A DNA stretch of 8,287 nucleotides from assembly GCA_020444165.1 (NCBI GenBank), contig JAHLLK010000183.1, positions 1 to 8,287 on the forward strand, in the 5' to 3' direction. The DNA comes from Deltaproteobacteria bacterium. GTDB taxonomy: Bacteria; Desulfobacterota; Desulfarculia; Desulfarculales; Desulfarculaceae. Below the pieces are notes generated by a model, which ran no database searches, was not told the origin of the DNA, and saw only the letters and a program-made list of their open reading frames with translations. Shown piece by piece: positions 1 through 8,287 of the stretch. The position numbers and the translations under genes are program-made. Position 1 is the first letter of the stretch, and every line of letters begins with the position of its first letter.

Positions 1-24
1 ATGAGATCGTGAAAGGCGTCAACC

Positions 25-507
25 TTATGAAACCTCTCGATGCACCATGCGGATAAGCTCATTGATCCGTTCGGCAAGCTCACGAGCGATGAGCTTCAGG
101 GTATCGTCCTGCAGCACCTCTCGCGCGGACTCATTGTCCGCAAGGGCGTCGTAAAAAGCCACCTCATCTTCGTTGAGGCCTGATTCTTCTCCTTTTTGCA
201 CTGCCTTGCGTATGGCCTGGGCAAGTCCAATGAGTTCTTCAATAACCTGCGCCGTCGTGAGCGCTCTATTATTATAACGGGTGAGCGTTGCTTCCAGGGA
301 TTCCCTGAACCCCCTGGATTGGACAATATTGACACGCTCCCTGCTGCGGATCTGATCATTGAGGAGTTTGCGCAGGGTTTCCAACGCCAAGTTCTTATGA
401 GGCAATGCCGCCAGCCGGTCGAGGAAGTCATCCGAGAGGATGCCGACGTTTTGTTCGGGAATGCCCGCAGCTCGGAAAAGATCTATCACGCCATCGGAAG
501 CAATCGG
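25..507 (-). pseudogene. hsdR: HsdR C-terminal fragment (type I restriction endonuclease subunit R, DUF3387-like region)
   Basis: About 160 codons matching the extreme C-terminus of type I restriction-modification HsdR, the ATP-dependent translocase/nuclease subunit that works with HsdM and HsdS. Visible family signatures, in order, are ASDGVIDLFRAAG, ILSDDFLDRL, PHKNLALETLRKLLNDQI, VQSRGF, YNNRALTTAQVIEELI and GLNEDEVAFYDALA. The frame ends at TAA (25-27). HsdR is normally around 1,000 residues; here the nuclease and helicase domains are absent and homology starts at about 504, directly after portal-gene sequence in another frame. A GTG at 489 could act as a start, but there is no sign that this was ever an independent gene. 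I read it as a remnant joined to the prophage by deletion, recombination or misassembly. Family assignment is confident; the origin of the junction is not known. Confidence 0.85.
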
Positions 508-1015
508 CCGGTCCGCGCAGGTGCCACATCTCGGAGGAGGAAAGTCCGATGCGGCGGCCGTCGTCGGTGGTCACCTCGTAGGAGATCACGTAGCCGTCGC
601 GCTTCACGGTCACCTGCTGCGGCTCGTAGGGGAGCAGCTCCACAACGCGGCCCAGCCCCCGATTCACGAACACAAAGGCGTTGCCGCAGAACACCAGGTG
701 CATGACCACCTGCTCGATGAACTCGAAGCTGGTCTGCCAGTCGTTGGGCGCGTCCCCGAGCAGGCCGTGCAGCGGGTGGTCGTCGGCCGGGGTGCGCACG
801 CCCCCTTGTGAGCAAAAGACCTTGAGCGGCACCTGGGCCAGCCCCTCGGCAATGACCCGGGCGCAGGCCAGGGCCGTGGTCGCCTGCAGGGCCGTATTCC
901 AGGTCACGGCCACGCCGCTCTTGGCGGGTTGGGTGAAGAAGCCGCCGGCCAGGAGGTCCTCCAGGGCCATCCGCGATGCCGACTTGCGGCCCTTGAGCCA
1001 GGAGATGACGCCCAT
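428..1015 (-). pseudogene. Phage portal protein, HK97 type, 3'-truncated
   Basis: The N-terminal ~170 residues resemble HK97-family portal proteins, which form the dodecameric ring at the capsid vertex through which the terminase packages DNA. Recognisable stretches are the N-terminal VTWNTALQATTALACARVIAEGLAQVP-type segment (residues ~38-63), HPLHGLLGDAPN (80-91), the FCGNAFVFVNRG segment (109-120) and EMWHLRGP (162-169). Such portals are about 400 residues; this frame leaves homology at about residue 170 (near 503-512) and runs 24-28 unrelated codons antisense-free into the hsdR remnant in a different frame before stopping at 428. The ATG (1013-1015) overlaps the terL stop as TGATG, so translation was coupled to terL. 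The product must be non-functional as a portal. Confidence 0.85.
503..512. other. Portal/hsdR chimeric junction
   Basis: Reading the minus strand, portal-like codons (EMWHLRGP) end at about 509 and HsdR-like codons (IASDGVIDLF) begin at about 504, in a different frame. The break therefore lies within roughly ten bases. I see no repeat, insertion-sequence end or target duplication at the point. It could be a deletion between prophage and a neighbouring restriction locus, or a contig misjoin. Confidence 0.75.
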
Positions 1016-2685
1016 CAGTCCCAGACCTCCATGCCGACAAACGGCTCTTCCGCATGGAACATGGCGCGGGAAAGGGCCATGATGGCGGCCACGATGCCGT
1101 CGATCTTGTTCTCGGCGCGTTCCTTGCCCGGATAATAGGCCTTGGTCCTGGTGGAGCGCAGCACCACGTTGGCGGCCTGCCAGGCCAGCAGCGGATCGCC
1201 GTCATGGTGCAGCTTGCCCGAAAGGTAGAGGGCCTCGAATTCCTTCATGGGCTCGGAGATGAAGGCCGGAGACTGGTTGATCTCGATGCAGGGAAAGGAC
1301 ACCCGCTCGCGGATCTCCTGCATGAGCATCTCGGCCTCGCGCGGATCGTAGGCCAGTTCTCGGATGGAGAAGCGCCCGGCGTAGGCCAGCAGGTCATCCA
1401 TGAGATAGTGGTAATCGGTGCGCGCGCCCGGCGTGGCCACCAGATGCCTTTCGGTCGTCCAGCGCTGGTAGTGGGCGTTTTCGGGAAGGGTGACCGTCTC
1501 CTCCGGCAGATAGTGCCGGCCGAAGAGATAAAACTCGTCGCCGCGCCTGAAGAGCAGCACCATGGCCGTGAGGTCCACCTTGGAGGCCAAGTCCACGCCG
1601 ACCCAGCAGGGCTCGCCCGCGAAGTCGTCCAGGGAAACGTCAGCCCGGCAAGCGTTCCACTTGACCATGTTGATCCAGGCCGAACCGGCGTTGGCCCAGA
1701 CGTTCAGGTGCTTGCACTTGAGGATGTTCTGGCGGGAAGCGATCTGCAGGGCCTCCTTGCGCCGGGCCTGGAGGAAATCGGGGTAGACCGAGACGCCCAG
1801 GTTCGGGTTGGCCTTTTCCCAGGACGGCCACTCGGTCCAATCGTCGTCTTCGTCGATGGTGAACACGATGGCGAAGAGTTGGTCGTTTTCCAGGGTGCCC
1901 TCGAGGACCTTCACGGCCTCGTCGCGTTTGGCGTAGCAGGGGCCGGAGGTGTCCACGCCGGCGGTGGTGATCACCGCCAGCATGGGCTGGGAGCGAGCGC
2001 CCATGCCGGTGAGCATGGTGTCGTAGAGGTCGGGCGTCTGGTGCTCGTGGTACTCGTCCACGATGGCGCAGTGGGGCGAGGCCCCGTCGCCAGGCTTGCC
2101 GATGACCGGCTCGAACTTGCTGGCATTGTCCAGGATGTGCAGGTTCTTGGCCCCGACATGGATGCCGAAGTGGCTGACGAAGGAAGGGTTCTTGAGGCAC
2201 ATCTGTCGGGCCGGACCGAAGACCTCCCAGGCCTGCTTCTCGCTGGTGGCACCGGAATAGACCTCGGCTCCGGGCTCGCCATCGGCCGCGAACATGTACA
2301 GGCCCAGGCAAGCCCCGAGCACGGACTTGCCGGATTTTCTCGGGATCTCGGCGTAGATTTCACGGAAGCGGCGCAGCCCGTCCGCCTTGCGCACCCAGCC
2401 GAAGGCCACGGCCAGGATGAAGCACTGCCAGGGTTCGAGGGCGATCTTCTTGCCCGCCCATTCCCGGCCCTTCACATGCACCATGTTGGAAGCGAAGCGG
2501 CAGATACGCTCGGCCGCCTCCCGATTCCAGCGGAAGGGGCATTCCTTGGATTTAGAGCGTTCCAGATCGCCCAGATGCCTCCCGCAGGCCTGCCGCACGA
2601 ACGAGCAAGCCGCGATCTTTCCACGCACGACGTCCCGCGCGTAGCGGTTGGCGGCGGTGGCATATGGATGGGTGGTCTTTGGCAT
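1015..2685 (-). CDS. terL: Phage terminase large subunit (TerL, Terminase_1/HK97-like)
   Basis: ATPase-nuclease motor that pumps phage DNA through the portal and cuts it. 556 residues, normal for the family. The N-terminal ATPase has a Walker A-type motif PRKSGKS (115-121), Walker B HCAIVDE (205-211, with D210-E211 as the acidic pair) and the coupling motif ITTAG (239-243). The C-terminal RNase H-like nuclease shows three well-spaced acidic positions: D365 in WVGVDLASKVD, D447 in LAYDPRE and D529 in KIDGIVAA. All key motifs are present, so the gene looks intact. The ATG at 2685 is followed by MPKTTHPYA, a typical family start. The stop overlaps the portal start by one base (TGATG). A 79-bp gap separates it from a divergent plus-strand gene, so unlike the usual terS-terL arrangement it is not tightly joined to terS and may need its own promoter or read-through. 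Confidence 0.95.
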   Translation of the reverse strand: MPKTTHPYATAANRYARDVVRGKIAACSFVRQACGRHLGDLERSKSKECPFRWNREAAERICRFASNMVHVKGREWAGKKIALEPWQCFILAVAFGWVRKADGLRRFREIYAEIPRKSGKSVLGACLGLYMFAADGEPGAEVYSGATSEKQAWEVFGPARQMCLKNPSFVSHFGIHVGAKNLHILDNASKFEPVIGKPGDGASPHCAIVDEYHEHQTPDLYDTMLTGMGARSQPMLAVITTAGVDTSGPCYAKRDEAVKVLEGTLENDQLFAIVFTIDEDDDWTEWPSWEKANPNLGVSVYPDFLQARRKEALQIASRQNILKCKHLNVWANAGSAWINMVKWNACRADVSLDDFAGEPCWVGVDLASKVDLTAMVLLFRRGDEFYLFGRHYLPEETVTLPENAHYQRWTTERHLVATPGARTDYHYLMDDLLAYAGRFSIRELAYDPREAEMLMQEIRERVSFPCIEINQSPAFISEPMKEFEALYLSGKLHHDGDPLLAWQAANVVLRSTRTKAYYPGKERAENKIDGIVAAIMALSRAMFHAEEPFVGMEVWD

Positions 2686-2750
2686 CTATTTACCTGGAAC
2701 AACTTGCTATATGCCAGGATGTATGGACATGTGGTCTGCAAGCGAACAGC

Positions 2751-2758
2751 GAAAGGAG
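2751..2758 (+). promoter_or_regulatory. Ribosome binding site of the 64-residue gene
   Basis: A GAAAGGAGAGG-type purine-rich stretch ends a few bases before ATG 2765. It is a strong Shine-Dalgarno and fixes the start at 2765 rather than at upstream in-frame ATGs such as 2648, which would overlap terL. Confidence 0.6.
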
Positions 2759-2764
2759 AGGACC

Positions 2765-2959
2765 ATGAGCAACCAGGAACAAGCCCTTGCCGACTTCATG
2801 AACAAGATTCAGGAATCCAGAGAGCTGCTGCGCAAGATCGGAGAGCGACTCGACGATCACCTCGGAGTCGCGCCGGAAGGGATCACCTGGGCCAATGCCG
2901 GAGACGCTGGGCGGATTCTGAACGACCTGCGGGACATCGCCGCATATCTTGAGGTGTAA
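2765..2959 (+). CDS. Small protein of unknown function between terL and terS (antiparallel)
   Basis: 64 residues, acidic overall and predicted largely helical: MSNQEQALADFMNKIQ followed by a heptad-like ESRELLRKIGERLDDHLG (about 16-33), then ITWANAGDAGRILNDLRDIAAYLEV to the end. There is no signal peptide, membrane segment, cysteine motif or recognisable domain. I do not recognise the family. A strong ribosome binding site and normal amino acid composition support a real gene. It runs against the phage genes: its stop is 8 bp from the terS stop (convergent) and its start is 79 bp from the terL start (divergent). That placement resembles a phage moron, a separately transcribed cargo gene, but no function can be inferred. 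A small helical regulator or anti-host protein is possible. Confidence 0.7.
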   Translation: MSNQEQALADFMNKIQESRELLRKIGERLDDHLGVAPEGITWANAGDAGRILNDLRDIAAYLEV

Positions 2960-2967
2960 GCGATCCC

Positions 2968-3426
2968 TCATGCTTTCCCGAACCCCGCCCATTCAGCATC
3001 TTCCTTCCCGGCCGGATTCGTCGCGACCCGTGTGCGGCTCGATGGCGTGAGGCCGAACTCGGTCAGAAATTTGTGCATGATCTCCATGGCCCGGTTGGCC
3101 ACCCCCACCAGCGGGTTCTGGATCACGTTGCCGCCGGTGGTCTTGATGAGCAGCCCGGACTGACGAATCTTGCGTTCTGCCTCGACAAAGCGCTCAAAGG
3201 CCTGGCAGTAAGCCGCCAGGGCCGCATCGTCCCCCTCGGTGAGCACGCCCATGCGGACGAGCACCGGAGCCTTGCGCAGCCATTCCTCCCGGGCGGTCTC
3301 GCCAAGGAAATCAGGCGGCTCGGGCAGCGCCGGGCCAAGCTCGGGCTCGTTGGGATTGACGCGGCACTTCTGCGCCGTGCCCTTGAGCATCTTGAGCTTG
3401 GTGGGGAGAGGCTTACGGCCGGCCAT
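2968..3426 (-). CDS. terS: Phage terminase small subunit (P27 family)
   Basis: DNA-recognition subunit of the packaging terminase. 152 residues, standard length. It begins MAGRKPLPTKLKMLKGTAQ, the basic start typical of the P27 family, followed by NPNEPELGPALPEPPDFLG (about 24-42), the helical region AREEWLRKAPVLVRMGVLTEGDDAALAAYC, and the family's terminal signature FGLTPSSRTRV (about 124-134). It appears intact. The ATG at 3426 has only a weak purine stretch (GAGAAAA) upstream. It lies downstream of the ParB-methylase on the same strand, but a rightward toxin-antitoxin pair (3476-4104) sits in between. The stop is 8 bp from that of the antiparallel 64-residue gene. Confidence 0.93.
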   Translation of the reverse strand: MAGRKPLPTKLKMLKGTAQKCRVNPNEPELGPALPEPPDFLGETAREEWLRKAPVLVRMGVLTEGDDAALAAYCQAFERFVEAERKIRQSGLLIKTTGGNVIQNPLVGVANRAMEIMHKFLTEFGLTPSSRTRVATNPAGKEDAEWAGFGKA

Positions 3427-3446
3427 GGTTTTCTCGCGATTCGGTG

Positions 3447-3475
3447 TTGACAGCGTTCAAACTGATAGTTAGAAA
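3447..3475 (+). promoter_or_regulatory. Candidate promoter/operator of the RelE/HigB-XRE toxin-antitoxin pair
   Basis: TTGACA (3447-3452), a 17-bp spacer and TAGAAA (3470-3475, four of six matches to TATAAT). The spacer contains a small palindrome AACT-GAT-AGTT (3460-3470), a possible antitoxin operator. If this promoter is used, transcription would start near 3482, which is itself an in-frame ATG, giving a leaderless toxin mRNA. Confidence 0.35.
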
Positions 3476-3736
3476 ATGGATATGTACACGCTTCGATTTT
3501 CCACGGCCGCATTGAAAGCTCTCAGAAAAGCGCCCGCCGATGTGGCTGAGCGCGTTCGAACGAAGCTGGATGAGCTGGCGCGAGACCCTTTCACGGCCGC
3601 CAACGTCAAAAAGCTCACCAGCCATCCGGGATATCGATTGCGTGTCGGCGACTGGCGGGTGATCTACCTGATCCAAAAGGAAGAGGTCGTCATCCAGGTG
3701 GTGGACATCGGACAGCGCAAGGAGGTGTATCGATGA
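3476..3736 (+). CDS. RelE/HigB-superfamily toxin
   Basis: 86-residue type II toxin of the RelE/ParE fold. Such proteins are usually ribosome-dependent mRNA interferases, although the ParE branch poisons gyrase; the sequence does not settle which. Family signatures are the N-terminal YTLRFSTAALKALRKAP, LTSHPGYRLRVGDWRVIYLI (about 48-66) and the terminal VVDIGQRKEVYR (75-86). The basic residues R54, R56 and R61 and the terminal R81/R86 with Y85 are those usually implicated in RNA binding and cleavage. Full length for the family. Two starts are possible: ATG 3476 or ATG 3482 (MYTLRFST); neither has a clear ribosome binding site. Its stop overlaps the antitoxin start as ATGA, so this is a toxin-first operon like higBA. 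It is encoded against the phage genes. Confidence 0.88.
   Translation: MDMYTLRFSTAALKALRKAPADVAERVRTKLDELARDPFTAANVKKLTSHPGYRLRVGDWRVIYLIQKEEVVIQVVDIGQRKEVYR
3719..3727 (+). promoter_or_regulatory. Ribosome binding site of the XRE antitoxin
   Basis: AAGGAGGTG lies inside the last toxin codons, 5 bases before ATG 3733. It is much stronger than anything in front of the toxin, which would favour antitoxin excess from a toxin-first message. Confidence 0.7.
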
Positions 3737-4104
3737 GCGTCCAGATTCTTGAACACGAAGGAAAGCCGGCGTTCGCGTTGATGCCCATCGAGGAATACGA
3801 ACGCCTTGTGACTGCCCTCGAGGATGCGCATGACGCCGCGACCATCGAGGAGTTCTACCGCCGACTTGTGTCCGGGGAAGAAGAAACCTTTCCGGCGGAA
3901 GTCGCCGACCGGCTGTTGGCTGGAGAGCATCCTGTCCGGGTGCTGCGTTCCCATCGGGGCATGACCCTGCAGCAGGTAGCTGACGCCTGCGGCGTGACCA
4001 ACTCCCACATCTCCCAGATCGAAAAAGGCAAGCGTTCCATGTCCACGGAGTTGCTGAAGAAGATGGCCGTGGCGCTCCGAGTTGACGCCGAGCTGCTGCT
4101 CTAA
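3733..4104 (+). CDS. Antitoxin with Phd/YefM-like N-terminus and C-terminal XRE helix-turn-helix
   Basis: 123 residues. The N-terminal part (VQILEHEGKPAFALMPIEEYERLVTALED, residues 3-31) resembles the Phd/YefM antitoxin core, in which a 'keep this value, P-x-EEYE' strand-helix precedes a toxin-binding region. The linker EEFYRRLVSGEEETFPAEVADRLLAGEHP runs to about residue 67. The C-terminus (68-121) is a Cro/CI-type helix-turn-helix: VRVLRSHRGMTLQQVADACGVTNSHISQIEKGKR. The order 'toxin-binding first, DNA-binding last' is the reverse of classical Phd. It should neutralise the preceding toxin and repress the shared promoter. The stop at 4104 is 15 bp from the convergent methylase stop at 4120. 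Intact. Confidence 0.87.
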   Translation: MSVQILEHEGKPAFALMPIEEYERLVTALEDAHDAATIEEFYRRLVSGEEETFPAEVADRLLAGEHPVRVLRSHRGMTLQQVADACGVTNSHISQIEKGKRSMSTELLKKMAVALRVDAELLL

Positions 4105-4119
4105 GGATACCTTCCCGCC

Positions 4120-4974
4120 TCATCGCCCTTCCTCCAGCACCGCCTTCTCGCCCGTGAAGTCTTGCCAGCGCTTCACGGCGACATCGACGTATGCGGGGTT
4201 CAGTTCCATGGCCAGACAGGCGCGGCCGGTGATTTCGGCGGCGATAATGCTGGTGCCGGAGCCGGAGAAAGGTTCGTACACGGCCTGGCCCGGGCTGGAG
4301 TTGTTCTCCATGGGCCGCTTCATGCACTCGACGGGCTTCTGGGTGCCATGGGTGGTGTCGGCGTCCTGGCCCTTGGACGGGATGTTCCAGATCGTGACCT
4401 GCTTGCGGTCTCCGCTCCAGTGGGCCTTGCCCTTGACCGCGTACCAGCAGGGCTCGTGCATCCAGTGGTAATGCCCCCGGGAGAGAACCAGACGTTCCTT
4501 GGCCCAGATGATCTGGGAGCGGATGTCGAAGCCGCAGGCCACAAGGCTTTCCGCGACCGTGGCCGCGTGCAGCGCCCCGTGCCAGACATAGGCCACATCG
4601 CCGGGGAACAGCGCCCAGGCCTCGCGCCAGTCGGCGCGGTCGTCGTTCAGGACCATGCCGGTGCGCTTGGTCTTCTGGCCGGACAGCGCCTCGTTGCGCC
4701 AGGCGGGATCGTATTCGACGCCATAAGGCGGGTCGGTGACCATGAGGTGCGGCCGGACGCCGGTCAGCAATTTGTCCACGTCGTTCGTGCTGGTGCTATC
4801 CCCGCACATGAGACGGTGGCGGCCCAGAATCCAGACATCACCCGGTTTGCTTACTGGCTCTGCAGGAGTCTCGGGCACCTCGTCAGGGTCGGTCAGGCCA
4901 TCGGTGGTAGGCTTGGCCAGCAGGGAGTCGATCTCGCCGGCGTCGAAGCCCGTGAGACTGACGTCAAAGGCCAT
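4120..4974 (-). CDS. DNA methyltransferase domain ORF (3' half of split ParB-methylase)
   Basis: 284-residue open frame with the complete methylase domain. The target-side motif DPPY (81-84) precedes the S-adenosylmethionine motif FSGSG (236-240), the order of beta-class enzymes; DPPY usually marks adenine-N6 transfer. The first 44 residues repeat the linker also encoded by the upstream frame. The ATG (4972-4974) overlaps the end of that frame (TGA at 4964-4966), so ribosomes finishing the ParB frame could restart here, although no good ribosome site precedes it. It may therefore still be made as a free methylase. The site specificity cannot be read from the sequence. Confidence 0.75.
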   Translation of the reverse strand: MAFDVSLTGFDAGEIDSLLAKPTTDGLTDPDEVPETPAEPVSKPGDVWILGRHRLMCGDSTSTNDVDKLLTGVRPHLMVTDPPYGVEYDPAWRNEALSGQKTKRTGMVLNDDRADWREAWALFPGDVAYVWHGALHAATVAESLVACGFDIRSQIIWAKERLVLSRGHYHWMHEPCWYAVKGKAHWSGDRKQVTIWNIPSKGQDADTTHGTQKPVECMKRPMENNSSPGQAVYEPFSGSGTSIIAAEITGRACLAMELNPAYVDVAVKRWQDFTGEKAVLEEGR

Positions 4975-5239
4975 GGCCTGGAGTTCTTCCAGTTCCAGGG
5001 CCAGGAGGTCCTCGTCCCAGGCGGCCCAATTGGCGGAACGGTTTGCTTACTGGCTCTGCAGGAGTCTCGGGCACCTCGTCAGGGTCGGTCAGGCCATCGG
5101 TGGTAGGCTTGGCCAGCAGGGAGTCGATCTCGCCGGCGTCGAAGCCCGTGAGACTGACGTCAAAGGCCATGGCCTGGAGTTCTTCCAGTTCCAGGGCCAG
5201 GAGGTCCTCGTCCCAGGCGGCCCAATTGGCGGAACGGTT
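4843..5239. repeat. Perfect tandem duplication, 196-bp period
   Basis: Bases 4843-5043 and 5039-5239 are identical over 201 bp as read by eye, sharing the 5-bp overlap CGGTT. The match fails on both sides (4842 C versus 5038 A; 5044 T versus 5240 G), so the unit is exactly 196 bp with a 5-bp microhomology at the junction. Because 196 is 65 x 3 + 1, the second unit shifts the ParB-methylase frame by one. Confidence 0.95.
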
Positions 5240-5503
5240 GGCCAGCAGGCGAAAGGCCTTCACCTGCGCGTCCGTCAGTTCGTCGGCCAGGGCCACGGGG
5301 ACTTCCGTAAGGCCCAGCTTGCGGGCGGCCTTGAGCCGCAGGTGCCCGTCCACCACGGTGCCGTCGGATTTGGCCACCACCGGGATGCGGAAGCCGAACT
5401 CCCGGATGGCCGCGACCATGCGCTCGACTTGCTCGTCGTTCTTGCGTGGGTTGCGGGCATAGGGAACAAGCCGCTCGATGGGCCAGGATTCGGTCTTCAG
5501 CAT
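4964..5503 (-). CDS. ParB-like domain ORF (5' half of split ParB-methylase)
   Basis: 179 residues from ATG 5503. Residues 1-110 form a ParB/sulfiredoxin-type domain: WPIERLVPYARNPRKNDEQV, GFRIPVVAKSDGTVVDGHLR (box II, DGHLRLKAA 52-60), LTEVPVALADELTDAQVKAF and ANRSANWAAWDEDLL. In phage methylases this domain is thought to bind nucleotide or DNA, possibly acting as a nuclease. Residues 111-155 are the normal linker, and the last 24 residues (FRQLGRLGRGPP onward) are frameshifted and meaningless. The end of the HNH gene overlaps its start by 7 bp, so the two were one operon. Confidence 0.72.
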   Translation of the reverse strand: MLKTESWPIERLVPYARNPRKNDEQVERMVAAIREFGFRIPVVAKSDGTVVDGHLRLKAARKLGLTEVPVALADELTDAQVKAFRLLANRSANWAAWDEDLLALELEELQAMAFDVSLTGFDAGEIDSLLAKPTTDGLTDPDEVPETPAEPVSKPFRQLGRLGRGPPGPGTGRTPGHGL

Positions 5504-5868
5504 GGTTTCGGTCCTGGGTGTGGGGTGCGCAGTCTGCCGTGCAGGCGCTCGTGGCATTCGCGGCACAGGCTCATGAGGTTGCCGCTCGCATTGTTGCGGG
5601 GATTGCCGTCACGATGGTGGACCACTTCGGCCGCCCGGGCGCAGATGGCGCAGAGCGGGTCCCGTCTGAGCTTGCGATGCCGGACCCGCTGCCAATGCGC
5701 GCCGTAGCCGCGTTTGGCCGCGCTCCCCCGGACTTTGTCTTGTGCCTTTCGGCGTCGGGCGAGGGCCTCATCCGCGAGATGCTCATGCTCCGGGCAATAT
5801 CCGCCGGCGTCTGTCGTCAGATTGCGGCAGCCCGGCTTGCGGCATGGTCTCGGCGGTCTTGGCGGCAT
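5497..5868 (-). CDS. Phage HNH endonuclease
   Basis: HNH nicking endonuclease of the kind found next to terminase genes, where it assists DNA packaging. From ATG 5868 (MPPRPPRPCRKPGC) the protein is 123 residues. An N-terminal zinc ribbon has C9, C14, C25 and H28 (PCRKPGC...GYCPEH). The HNH core is RRDPLCAICARAAEVVHHRDGNPRNN...NLMSLCRECHERLHG, with CxxC, the HH pair, the central N and a second CxxCH followed by H. The catalytic and zinc positions are intact. The start is uncertain: ATG 5883 and GTG 5913 are also in frame, and only GTG 5913 has a clear ribosome site (GGAG, 5 bases). I favour 5868 because family members begin shortly before the PCRxPGC motif. The stop overlaps the ParB-methylase start. 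Confidence 0.9.
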   Translation of the reverse strand: MPPRPPRPCRKPGCRNLTTDAGGYCPEHEHLADEALARRRKAQDKVRGSAAKRGYGAHWQRVRHRKLRRDPLCAICARAAEVVHHRDGNPRNNASGNLMSLCRECHERLHGRLRTPHPGPKPC

Positions 5869-5913
5869 ACCCCCACCCGTCATTTTGCACGTGAAAAAAT
5901 TCGGGGGCGGCAC

Positions 5914-6111
5914 ACGGTCTCCAGGCTGAACCTACAGAGATTCGACCCGCCCCCGGGCATCCCCAGAGGGCTTTCCCCTCTCTTGCATACATACCGGGGC
6001 GAATCGGAAAACGTCGGCGGAGAGGTAAAATTTTTCGATTGATACGATTTTGGGTTGTCAGGACATCTTCCGTACATTATCTTCAGTGAGGAGAAACAAG
6101 GAGGATTCCGA
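5914..6111. other. Divergent intergenic region between HNH and tacA
   Basis: Holds no convincing gene. It should contain the leftward promoter for HNH-methylase and the rightward promoter for tacA-tacT. There is a short hairpin AGAGGG-CTTTC-CCCTCT (5965-5981), an AT-rich stretch at 6028-6050, and a small palindrome TGTC-AG-GACA (6056-6065) next to TTGTCA that could be a TacA operator. None of these makes a clear consensus promoter. Confidence 0.4.
6100..6105 (+). promoter_or_regulatory. Ribosome binding site of tacA
   Basis: AAGGAGG stands immediately upstream, 7 bases before ATG 6112. This selects 6112 over the earlier in-frame ATG at 6055. Confidence 0.7.
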
Positions 6112-6390
6112 ATGTCGCCCACCACTCAGACGAAGACGGAACGAATCGACGTCCGGCTCAGTCCCTCATCGAAGGCGCTGTTGCAGGAAGCGGCCAAGGC
6201 GACGCATAAAAACGTCAGCGAGTTCATTTTGGAGGCGGGGATTGTCGCCGCCAATCAGGCCTTGGCTGAACGACGGCTGTTCCTGCTGGACGAAGCTCGG
6301 TGGAAAGAGTTTCAGGAGATACTGGATCGTCCGGTCCAGAAGAAGCCTCGCCTGGGCAAACTGCTGAGCGAGCCTGGCGTTCTTGACTGA
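6112..6390 (+). CDS. tacA: TacA-type antitoxin (DUF1778, ribbon-helix-helix)
   Basis: 92-residue antitoxin partner of the following acetyltransferase. The N-terminal ribbon-helix-helix, which binds the operator as a dimer, is ERIDVRLSPSSKALLQEAAK with VSEFILEAGIVAANQAL (residues 10-51). The C-terminal tail (FLLDEARWKEFQEILDRPV...PRLGKLLSEPGVLD, 57-92) is the segment that wraps around and inhibits the GNAT toxin in this family. Normal length and intact. A consensus AAGGAGG sets the start. Its TGA overlaps the toxin ATG as TGATG, so the pair is translationally coupled, with the antitoxin first. It sits opposite to the phage genes, divergent from HNH. Confidence 0.92.
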   Translation: MSPTTQTKTERIDVRLSPSSKALLQEAAKATHKNVSEFILEAGIVAANQALAERRLFLLDEARWKEFQEILDRPVQKKPRLGKLLSEPGVLD

Positions 6391-6893
6391 TGGGCGGTCG
6401 GTTTGGTCCGGTCCACAAGCTTACGGCAGCGGACGAGGCAGGGGATTTCGATTGCGGTCAGCAGGAACTGAATCTTTTTTTGCACCGCTATGCCCTTGTC
6501 AATCAGAGAGCCAACAGCGCTCAGACGTATGTGTCCTGTGTGGACGACGCTGTCGTCGGCTACTACAGCCTCTGTGTGAGCAGCGTCGGTTTTGATGACG
6601 CGCCCCATCGGGTGATAAAGGGGCTTGCCAGGCATCGTGTGCCCGTCATGCTTCTGGCCCGCCTTGGCGTGGATCAGAAGTTTCAGCGCCAGGGGTTGGG
6701 CCAGGCCCTGCTCAAAGACGCCATCCTGCGCACCATGCAGGCGGCGGATATCGCCGGAATTCGTGCACTACTGGCGCACGCCAAGGACGAGCATGCCCGG
6801 CAGTGGTATCTCTCCTGGGATTTCGAACCCAGCCCCACAGATCCTTTCCACCTGTTTTTGCTCATCAAGGACATGCGTGAAGCGGGAAGATAG
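6390..6893 (+). CDS. tacT: TacT-type GNAT acetyltransferase toxin
   Basis: 167-residue toxin of the TacT/AtaT class, which uses acetyl-CoA to acetylate the amino group of charged aminoacyl-tRNA and stops translation. Family marks: FDCGQQELNLFLHRYAL (20-36, the FxCGxxxLxxFL start), VVGYYSLCV (55-63), LARLGVDQKFQRQGLGQALLKDA (89-111, acetyl-CoA loop QRQGLG) and QWYLSWDFEPSPTDPFHLFLLIKD (138-161) with the conserved catalytic-type Y140. The usual FGF after that tyrosine is WDF here, a mild departure. Full length, with no frame damage. Coupled to tacA by TGATG. The next plus-strand remnant begins 94 bp downstream. Confidence 0.92.
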   Translation: MGGRFGPVHKLTAADEAGDFDCGQQELNLFLHRYALVNQRANSAQTYVSCVDDAVVGYYSLCVSSVGFDDAPHRVIKGLARHRVPVMLLARLGVDQKFQRQGLGQALLKDAILRTMQAADIAGIRALLAHAKDEHARQWYLSWDFEPSPTDPFHLFLLIKDMREAGR

Positions 6894-6987
6894 CACACTG
6901 CGCTTATCATACGGCATCAGAGATCAAAGCTCATGCCGCTGGGAACGTACGGGTCGTTGTCATTGCTCAGAATGGGAGGCCAAGGCC

Positions 6988-7140
6988 GTGATCCAAAATT
7001 TATCCAGTTCCAAGCAGACCCAGGAGACCTTGGCGCTGCTCAAAATCCTGGCACTCGGAAACCGCCAGATCGAGGAAGGCAAGGTCCAATCGGCCGGAGA
7101 AGCACTCCAGCGTCTGCGGGAGCGGGTGGGGAATCGTTGA
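6988..7140 (+). pseudogene. C-terminal remnant of a Phd/RelB-type antitoxin
   Basis: 50 codons from GTG 6988 (GGGAGG 8 bases upstream) to TGA 7140. The stretch ETLALLKILALGNRQIEEGK followed by VQSAGEALQRLRERV matches the toxin-binding C-terminal half common in Phd/YefM and RelB-type antitoxins. The N-terminal DNA-binding half is missing: bases 6894-6987 hold no recognisable piece of it in any plus frame. It is followed at once by a ParE-like toxin remnant, which supports the reading as a decayed antitoxin. The GTG and ribosome site leave open that a 50-residue peptide is still made. Confidence 0.6.
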
Positions 7141-7242
7141 TAGCTTTCAACGGCGTTGCTGGCTGAGGATGTGTTTCGCGACCTGGAGGGCATTTATGAC
7201 TTCATTGCCACACATGATAAAAATACCTACACATTTTCATAA
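7137..7242 (+). pseudogene. N-terminal remnant of a ParE/RelE-type toxin
   Basis: Frame +1 at 7159-7242 reads LAEDVFRDLEGIYDFIATHDK and then stops at TAA. This is the signature of the first helix of ParE-type toxins (x-AE-DL-x-IYDYIA-x-HD). The likely old start is the TTG at 7137 overlapping the antitoxin stop, in another frame (IAFNGV); a one-base frameshift around 7158 then leads into the toxin frame. Everything beyond the first ~30 residues is lost. Together with 6988-7140 this makes a dead antitoxin-toxin pair in canonical order and spacing. Confidence 0.6.
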
Positions 7243-7292
7243 GTGTCTGGGTTTTTATCAAGGTGATGATTTCATGTCCTCGCTCGTGTGCG

Positions 7293-7300
7293 TATAGAAT
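7293..7300 (+). promoter_or_regulatory. Candidate -10 element for the orphan DUF1778 gene
   Basis: TATAGAAT contains TAGAAT (five of six to TATAAT), 51 bases before ATG 7352. The matching -35 region (TTCATG, 7271-7276) is weak, so this is only a candidate. The surrounding 7243-7338 is AT-richer than its neighbours and contains no gene. Confidence 0.3.
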
Positions 7301-7351
7301 ATTAACGGGCGCAGATGTACTCCTTAACACGCCAGACTGGAGGACATGACA

Positions 7352-7636
7352 ATGCAGCAATCTCGTCCGTCGAGCCGCAGCACGAATATCATTATCCGGG
7401 TGACTCCCGAGCAGCGGGACCTGATCGACCAGGCCGCCTTGCTCAACAACAAGACCCAGACCGATTTCATCCTCGAAGCGGCGACCATGGCCGCGCAGGA
7501 CTCCATCCTCGACCAGGTGCTGCTTCCCGTCCCAGTCGAACAGTTCGAGGCGTTCCAGAGATTTCTGGAGAGATCACCTGAACAGGACAAACGCTTGAGC
7601 GCCCTCATGGCACGTACGTCTCGCTGGGGGAAGTGA
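7352..7636 (+). CDS. Orphan DUF1778 (TacA-like) antitoxin without a toxin partner
   Basis: 94 residues from ATG 7352; GGAGG at 7339-7343 is 8 bases away, whereas the alternative ATG 7346 is only 2 bases away. The ribbon-helix-helix is STNIIIRVTPEQRDLIDQAA with TQTDFILEAATMAAQDSILD (10-54). The C-terminal toxin-binding region is VPVEQFEAFQRFLERSPEQDKRLSALMARTSRW (61-92). It is clearly the same family as the tacA at 6112 but is diverged, not a recent copy. No GNAT gene follows: the next bases lead into iteron-like repeats and the opposing primase. It may be a remnant whose toxin was lost, a regulator, or an anti-addiction gene. Confidence 0.88.
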   Translation: MQQSRPSSRSTNIIIRVTPEQRDLIDQAALLNNKTQTDFILEAATMAAQDSILDQVLLPVPVEQFEAFQRFLERSPEQDKRLSALMARTSRWGK

Positions 7637-7653
7637 TCCCTTCAATATCCCTT

Positions 7654-7680
7654 TTGGACGCATTGGACGGATTGGACGCA
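7654..7680 (+). repeat. Three 9-bp iteron-like direct repeats (TTGGACGSA)
   Basis: TTGGACGCA-TTGGACGGA-TTGGACGCA in perfect 9-bp register. The motif recurs in inverted orientation at 7742-7764. The 15-bp core TTGGACGGATTGGAC (7663-7677) is a perfect inverted match to 7744-7758. Confidence 0.8.
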
Positions 7681-7697
7681 TCTTCCGGTTGAAGCCC

Positions 7698-7723
7698 TAC
7701 GCGCATGCGCGCACGCGCGCGTG
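7698..7723. other. 26-bp strictly alternating purine-pyrimidine tract
   Basis: From TACGCGCATG to GCGCGTG every base alternates pyrimidine/purine, mostly CG and CA/TG steps. Such tracts can adopt Z-DNA under negative supercoiling. It sits in the centre of the inverted iteron-like arrays. Confidence 0.7.
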
Positions 7724-7737
7724 GCCGATTAACGGTT

Positions 7738-8187
7738 TCATCTGTCCAATCCGTCCAACCGTCCATCGTGTTCGATCTTGACGGCGATACCCCGGAATAT
7801 CCGCTGGGTCGAGCCGAACACCGTCCTTCTGTCGGCGATGAACTCACGCTTGGCCAGATTCGCACTGAATGCCTTGGTACTGCCGGCGTGCTCTCCGTTG
7901 CGATCCGCGTAGTTCTTCCACGATTCGAAGAGGCGGGCCGTGGTCTCCCACGATGCCCTCCCAATTTCGCAGCATTCCTCGATCCACTGCCCGAAGAGGT
8001 CCTGCTCGTCGAAATAGGCGGCCGTGGCCTCCTTCACGCTCTCGGGCCGCAGGAGTCCGTTTTCCTGCCAGTCCAGGCAGCCTTCGATCATCCAGCGCAG
8101 GATGACCGGGTACTCGGCCTTCAGTTTCTCTTCCAGGCGCTTGTCCGGGCTCGCGGGCTTGTGGATGAAAGGAATGATGTTGTGAGC
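7738..8187 (-). pseudogene. C-terminal part of a P4-type phage/plasmid primase-helicase, 5'-truncated
   Basis: Last ~148 codons of a P4-alpha-like primase/helicase, the replication protein of phage satellites and small prophages. Homology starts at about NIIPFIHKPASPDKRLEEKL (from ~8181), continues YPVILRWMIEGCLDWQENGL, VKEATAAYFDEQDLFGQWIEEC and WETTARLFESWKNYADRNGE, and ends with TQRIFRGIAVKIEHDGRLDG. These are the post-helicase C-terminal elements of the family, normally preceded by several hundred residues of primase and helicase. A TAG lies just upstream (8188-8190) and no start codon precedes the homology; ATG 8091 is the first in-frame ATG. The 5' part is missing, replaced at ~8185 by the region carrying a plus-strand operator and gene. 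It reads in the same direction as HNH and the terminases. Confidence 0.82.
7742..7764 (-). repeat. Inverted counterpart of the 9-bp iteron-like repeats
   Basis: On the minus strand: GGACGG-TTGGACGGA-TTGGACAGA. It overlaps the last codons of the primase (encoding DGRLDGLDR) and mirrors the 7654-7680 array across a 65-bp spacer. Confidence 0.75.
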
Positions 8188-8213
8188 CTATTCGCATGGA
8201 ACATGGCAACCGG

Positions 8214-8253
8214 GAGAATGTTATGCTATACTAGAGGATAGCATAACATTCTC
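8214..8253. promoter_or_regulatory. Perfect 16-bp inverted repeat: operator/promoter of the right-edge gene
   Basis: Arms GAGAATGTTATGCTAT (8214-8229) and its exact complement (8238-8253) around an 8-base spacer. TATACT (8227-8232) at the edge of the left arm is a good -10 element; the -35 is weak (TGGCAA, 8204-8209). A dimeric repressor bound here would block transcription of the gene starting at 8267, as in autoregulated toxin-antitoxin or phage-repressor promoters. No U-run follows the stem, so a terminator is less likely. Confidence 0.7.
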
Positions 8254-8266
8254 TTGGAGGTCTGCC

Positions 8267-8287
8267 ATGGCCAAGCAATACAAGTTT
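8267..8287 (+). CDS. Start of an unidentified gene, cut by the window end
   Basis: ATG 8267 with GGAGG (8256-8260) six bases upstream; only MAKQYKF is visible. The product cannot be identified from seven residues. The strong inverted repeat directly upstream suggests an autoregulated gene, by context perhaps another antitoxin or regulator. Confidence 0.5.

What the first reader, a model, noticed from the sequence alone, without database searches (positions are those of the whole stretch)
4843..5239. A 196-bp tandem duplication splits a phage ParB-methylase; deleting one unit restores it exactly
Two 201-bp copies are identical and overlap by CGGTT. With one copy the span 4120-5503 becomes 1,188 bp, a clean 396-codon frame reading through the linker VSKP into GDVWILGRH. 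Perfect identity means the event is recent. Direct repeats of this size can be lost by replication slippage or recombination, so this could be a reversible on/off switch of a DNA methylase. An assembly error is the main alternative.
Basis: partly seen in the sequence, partly recalled or inferred. Interest (0 to 1): 0.75.

Follow-up and report, generated by a model that had tools for sequence, protein, structure and literature searches.

The report
Recent tandem duplication breaking phage methylase
A stretch of 196 DNA letters has been copied twice in a row inside a phage gene for a DNA-modifying enzyme, splitting it into two overlapping reading frames; the copy is real in this sequence and recent, but the close relatives examined carry one copy, so it looks like an ordinary chance mutation (or a sequencing artefact) rather than a built-in switch.

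Summary
Confirmed: window 4843-5043 equals 5039-5239 exactly (196-bp unit, 201-bp identity). It lies in a minus-strand ParB-like/DNA-methylase fusion gene and splits it into ORF 4964-5566 (ParB_N) and ORF 4120-4974 (N6_N4_Mtase), which match different parts of one family model and share about 45 linker residues. Nine of nine distinct close relatives have one unit, and in six of them AACCG stands at both ends, so the duplication probably arose at a pre-existing 5-bp repeat. None of 160 related loci has a direct repeat of 20 bp or more in the gene. Window-private codon changes outside the unit are 4 synonymous, 0 non-synonymous: the event is very recent, or the halves are still selected, or it is an artefact. 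The phage DNA (506-8182) ends inside the portal and primase genes, so it looks like a remnant. An adaptive on/off switch is not supported: no two-unit allele was found elsewhere, and the methylase domain stays whole in its own ORF. Collapse is expected as for any tandem duplication. Without reads an artefact cannot be excluded.

The parts
4843..5038 (-). Repeat unit copy 1 (196 bp; identity to the other copy runs on to 5043)
5039..5234 (-). Repeat unit copy 2 (196 bp; identity runs on to 5239)
   Evidence: in relatives both flanks map onto a single copy
4843..4847 (-). 5-bp microhomology CGGTT/AACCG, outer end of copy 1
   Evidence: AACCG at both ends of the single unit in L009, L010, L012, G001, G007, G036
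5039..5043 (-). 5-bp microhomology at the duplication junction
5235..5239 (-). 5-bp microhomology, outer end of copy 2
4964..5566 (-). ORF1: ParB-like N-terminal half plus linker, ending in an off-frame tail of about 24 residues (200 aa from the first GTG; ATG at 5503)
   Evidence: ORF; ParB_N E 2e-6; phrog_498 24-192; PDLC03229 9-168; AF2 model with pLDDT <50 at 176-186 and 191-194
4120..4974 (-). ORF2: linker plus complete N6_N4_Mtase domain (284 aa); its ATG overlaps the end of ORF1 (11 nt shared)
   Evidence: ORF; PF01555 2-221 of 221, E 2.4e-16; phrog_498 147-431; PDLC03229 124-410
506..8182 (.). Phage-like segment; similarity to relatives ends at 506-510 inside the portal gene (6 loci) and at 8182 inside the primase gene (5 loci)

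Best explanation
This is a recent, private, spontaneous 196-bp tandem duplication in the linker region of a phage ParB-like/DNA-methylase fusion gene, carried in what looks like a truncated phage remnant. Inferred mechanism: replication slippage or illegitimate recombination between two AACCG repeats 196 bp apart doubled the segment. As 196 is not a multiple of three, the frame shifts after the first copy. Shown: the gene now reads as a ParB-like ORF with a short off-frame tail and an overlapping ORF with the whole methylase domain. Inferred: the fused enzyme is lost, or only its two halves are made; the duplication is unstable and would be lost at the usual rate for tandem repeats, without a dedicated switch.
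For: Exact 201-bp identity. One unit in 9 of 9 distinct close relatives: L009 (same record as G002 by length and positions), L010, L011, L012, L013, L089 (identical to G034 over the 601 bases compared), G001, G007, G036. AACCG at both ends of the single unit in 6 of these 9; chance of 5 bp or more at a random junction in the L012 gene region is 0.008. No exact direct repeat of 20 bp or more at offsets 30-699 in the gene region in any of 160 loci, some of which are one genome in two collections. Window-private codon changes outside the unit: 4 synonymous, 0 non-synonymous (distant L011 and L013 left out). Remnant state: portal and primase cut.
Against: No reads, and the window's own assembly is not held, so an artefact is not excluded. 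A 5-bp microhomology is short: in PMC3411829 (passages) 5 of 8 tested duplications were verified, all at 11 bp or more; those at 7, 9 and 17 bp failed. Three of nine relatives lack AACCG at one end. The private changes show none of the relaxed selection expected of an old broken gene, which would also fit selection on the separate halves.
Confidence: 0.62

Rival explanations
1. Assembly or library artefact: a chimeric molecule or a mis-joined overlap doubled a 196-bp stretch that is single in the organism.
For: Single unit in 9 of 9 distinct close relatives; exact junction 22-mer absent from IMG/VR; 3 of 288 family genomes match the junction with 3 mismatches, none a junction, and the backward control pattern also hit 3 genomes; short microhomology; private changes 4/0 as expected of an intact gene.
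Against: Inference: an assembler working with long k-mers does not make a junction on a 5-bp overlap unless some read carries it; the AACCG pair already present in 6 of 9 relatives fits a biological slip, though template switching in the laboratory can also use such repeats.
Confidence: 0.25
2. Gene fission: the duplication gives each half its own linker, and the two ORFs are made as separate ParB-like and methylase proteins by translational coupling through the 11-nt overlap; a later collapse would fuse them again.
For: Methylase domain complete in ORF2 and ParB_N nearly complete in ORF1; ORFs overlap by 11 nt; methylase-only ORFs are predicted on longer contigs, e.g. P0168 (296 aa, 15-kb contig) starting in the same linker and P0145 (314 aa, 28-kb contig) starting a little before it; no non-synonymous private change in either half outside the unit.
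Against: Of 160 loci none is split by a duplication and 152 are fused and complete; the ORF2 start Met is found in the six close loci tested but in only 19 of 160 loci; it lies in a mostly paired stretch (fold z -2.0) and has only a weak ribosome-binding-site candidate by eye; the ORF1 tail is off-frame and of low model confidence; the methylase-only ORFs may themselves be broken genes.
Confidence: 0.08
3. Adaptive phase-variable switch: gain and loss of one unit toggles the methylase in the population.
For: Shift of 1 mod 3; tandem repeats collapse at measurable rates (PMC3047425, passages); ORF-internal duplications causing phase variation in pneumococcal capsule genes are cited in PMC4022640 (passages).
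Against: No two-unit allele found elsewhere; formation would rely on a 5-bp repeat, so the forward step should be rare (inference); methylase domain not removed; the phage segment itself is truncated.
Confidence: 0.05

Closest known systems
Spontaneous ORF-internal tandem duplications, e.g. in pneumococcal capsule genes (Waite et al. 2001 and 2003; seen here only as references, and as a mention of a duplication in wchA, in passages of PMC4022640)
   Same: A tandem duplication inside a coding frame disrupts the gene; loss of one unit would return the frame (reversion there is recalled, apart from 'phase variation' in the titles).
   Different: There the phenotype was studied; here there is one assembled sequence, no reads and no phenotype.
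ParB-methylase fusions (phrog_498; PADLOC PDLC03229; Bacillus cereus Bce_0392 described in PMC5512222, passages)
   Same: ParB-like domain followed by an adenine-type methylase; both window ORFs match one model.
   Different: The window copy is interrupted by the duplication.
Phase-variable DNA methyltransferases (phasevarions; search listing only)
   Same: A methyltransferase gene whose frame could change with repeat number.
   Different: Those with simple repeats carry many short units (recalled); here there are two 196-bp units and no population evidence.

Membership tests
Phage ParB-methylase fusion (phrog_498 / PDLC03229) | ParB-like domain on the N-terminal side | tested here: met
   PF02195 E 2e-6 in ORF1; Foldseek to Noc/ParB chains, best E 4.9e-6
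Phage ParB-methylase fusion (phrog_498 / PDLC03229) | N6_N4_Mtase domain with catalytic motifs | tested here: met
   PF01555 2-221 of 221 in ORF2; D81 and P82 invariant, P83 and Y84 nearly so, F236, G238, S239 and G240 invariant among 32 sequences (ORF2 and 31 chosen from the 120 listed); Foldseek to METTL3- and HpyAVI-type methylases, E about 1e-5, from a low-confidence model of pLDDT 62
Phage ParB-methylase fusion (phrog_498 / PDLC03229) | Both domains in one open frame | tested here: not met
   Two overlapping ORFs in the window; 152 of 160 relatives complete and fused
Phase-variable locus (repeat-number switch) | More than one repeat-number state in a population or recurring among relatives | tested here: not met
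   One unit in 9 of 9 distinct close relatives; two units only in the window. Within-population states are not testable here
Phase-variable locus (repeat-number switch) | Reversible change observed in a clone, with a phenotype | not testable with these tools
   No reads; own assembly not held
Microhomology-bounded tandem duplication | Short direct repeat at both ends of the single unit before duplication | tested here: met
   AACCG at both ends in 6 of 9 distinct relatives (L009, L010, L012, G001, G007, G036); one end altered in L089, L013, L011

The most novel reading that the evidence does not exclude
The duplication is an architecture switch rather than an on/off switch: with one unit the phage makes a fused ParB-methylase, with two units it makes the same two domains as separate, translationally coupled proteins, each with its own linker, and repeat collapse moves between the states.
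Probability: 0.05. Interest if true: 0.7.

Novelty: new member of a known kind. Interest (0 to 1): 0.25.

Why it matters
As found it is one more example of a spontaneous tandem duplication interrupting a gene, with the pre-duplication short repeat visible in relatives. If both halves were shown to be made, it would be a gene fission caught in the act: a single duplication that leaves both domains whole and could be undone by repeat collapse.

Tried and rejected
Tried without result: exact junction 22-mer in viral contigs (0); junction pattern with 3 mismatches in 288 genomes of the family of G001: 3 genomes matched (the backward control pattern also hit 3), two of them at the ordinary unit border (G001, G036) and one (G167, L181) with no ParB or methylase match nearby. 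Left remnant junction and right palindrome in viral contigs: 0 each. Window 1-505: no match in G001 or G002, weak matches in 5 of 288 family genomes, none in plasmids, two phage records at 32-34% protein identity; the host was not identified. Window 5930-8287 in plasmids gave only partial matches in 14 records. Annotated phage records gave 11 matches at 60-80% identity to the gene, none covering 80% of it. G042, a fifth family genome, matched only a 77% piece outside the unit and says nothing on unit number; it was left out of the counts. Rejected: a transposon or intein as cause (the repeat is a plain tandem copy with no insert; the insert in G001 lies elsewhere in the gene); an old pseudogene (private changes 4/0). 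The junction peptide or a doubled linker motif was looked for in 240 retrieved proteins: 0; these are the listed best 120 of each of two searches. ParB-only and methylase-only proteins often come from short contigs and were not counted as natural splits. The ORF2 structure model was weak (pLDDT 62) and serves only to support the fold class.

Full report
The observation. A script comparing the window with itself found one exact run of 25 or more bases at offsets 20-599: offset 196, positions 4843-5043 against 5039-5239, 201 bases. The repeat finder gives the same pair. The copies overlap by CGGTT on the + strand, AACCG on the coding (minus) strand.

The gene. On the minus strand ORF 4964-5566 carries ParB_N (PF02195, E 2e-6) and ORF 4120-4974 carries N6_N4_Mtase (PF01555, full profile, E 2.4e-16). 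phrog_498 matches ORF1 at 24-192 and ORF2 at 147-431; PADLOC PDLC03229 matches ORF1 at 9-168 and ORF2 at 124-410. The two ORFs are thus parts of one family protein and share about 45 linker residues, as expected of a duplicated linker. Sequence matches in the PDB are to adenine methylases (5hek, CcrM and others) for ORF2 and to Noc and Spo0J for ORF1. AlphaFold2 gave a fair ORF1 model (mean pLDDT 78.9, tail low) and a weak ORF2 model (62.1); Foldseek placed them with Noc/ParB and with METTL3- and HpyAVI-type methylases.

Relatives. The own assembly is not held. In every near relative both flanks of the repeat map onto one copy: L009 (same record as G002), L010, L011, L012, L013, L089 and G001, and G007, G034, G036. 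A 601-base comparison shows L089 and G034 identical and the other pairs different by 23 or more bases, so nine are distinct; each has exactly one hit of the unit. Across the 160 loci no exact direct repeat of 20 bases or more was found at offsets 30-699 in the gene region. 152 of 160 have one complete fused ORF (151 by the script, plus L013, which the script had put apart and one search shows fused); 5 run off the locus start; 3 (L060, L166, L134) have an in-frame TAG. Some loci are one genome in two collections, such as L060 and L166.

Origin. The single unit is bounded by AACCG on both sides, 196 bp apart, in L009, L010, L012, G001, G007 and G036; L089, L013 and L011 differ at one end. In the L012 gene region a random junction has 5 or more bases of microhomology with probability 0.008. 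This fits slippage or illegitimate recombination at a pre-existing short repeat but does not prove it: in PMC3411829 (passages) 5 of 8 tested duplications were verified, all with 11 bp or more, and those with 7, 9 and 17 bp were not. The unit itself is 99% identical to L012 (2 differences in 201), while the rest of the gene differs from L012 by 4-5%; this local closeness is not explained.

Age and selection. Codons outside the unit in which the close relatives agree and the window differs number 4 synonymous and 0 non-synonymous (the distant L011 and L013 and positions covered by fewer than four loci were left out, with five reference loci, compares 237 methylase and 88 ParB codons and gives the same). 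Other genes of the segment show, synonymous/non-synonymous, 14/5 (TerL), 0/2 (TerS), 4/3 (portal part), 11/6 (HNH), 2/4 (ParE-like), 2/0 (HTH), 4/1 (primase part). The break is therefore very recent, or the halves are still selected, or it is an artefact. Similarity to relatives ends at 506-510 (6 loci) and at 8182 (5 loci), inside the portal and primase genes; left of 506 lies the C-terminal part of a type I restriction subunit (PF11867). The segment looks like a phage remnant, although a chimeric contig could also give such ends.

How it works. Translation of ORF1 passes through the first copy it meets (5039-5239) in the native frame, is shifted in the other, and stops at 4966-4964. The ATG of ORF2 at 4974-4972 lies just before that stop; the two ORFs share 11 nt. 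Reinitiation at ORF2 is possible but unproven: the start lies in a mostly paired stretch (z -2.0), and a Met stands at this position in the six close loci tested but in only 19 of 160 loci. Methylase-only ORFs are predicted on longer contigs (P0145, P0168 and others), but they may themselves be broken genes.

Switch or not. Loss of one of two direct repeats is expected: a 466-bp tandem duplication on a plasmid recombined at 1.5-5.0 x 10^-3, without an effect of recA in S. Typhimurium (PMC3047425, passages). ORF-internal duplications linked to phase variation are known from pneumococcal capsule genes (references and a mention in PMC4022640, passages). But a switch needs two recurrent states, and only the window has two units. 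The most economical reading is a private mutation, with an artefact as the main rival.

What is known. ParB-methylase fusions are described (Bce_0392 in PMC5512222, passages). I saw no report of such a duplication in a phage ParB-methylase in the listings of searches of the open-licence library; that is no proof of absence.

Noticed in passing
L169 (G001:C10, about 61142-62001), corresponding to window 4447-4450: The same methylase gene in the nearest held genome carries an in-frame insert of about 288 codons that starts with Cys and ends VTHN before the Cys of the HEPCW motif; it looks like an intein (PF14890 E 0.0024, below its cut-off). A different insert, with a hidden HNH frame, in a phage methylase is described in PMC11855218 (abstract).
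   Followed up: partly
L060 and L166 at 8235 (same gene in two collections), L134 at 2927: An in-frame TAG stands at the Tyr position of the catalytic DPPY motif in two lineages; of 162 motif matches in 160 loci, 155 have TAC or TAT there.
   Followed up: partly
window 3427-4130: A ParE/RelE-like toxin and an HTH protein sit between the terminase small subunit and the methylase; they are absent in L012 and L089, where the flanks are 9 bp apart, and in L013, where they are 137 bp apart.
   Followed up: partly
window 6055-6893 and 7346-7636: A TacA-like antitoxin with a GNAT protein, and a second lone TacA-like gene.
   Followed up: no
window 8214-8253: A 19-bp near-perfect palindrome upstream of an open + strand frame starting at 8267, just outside the phage segment; its 39-mer is absent from viral contigs.
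   Followed up: partly
window 5039-5239 and L012 7932-8132: The repeat unit is 99% identical to L012 while the flanking gene differs by 4-5%, as if a short recombination patch; it may also be chance among several relatives.
   Followed up: no
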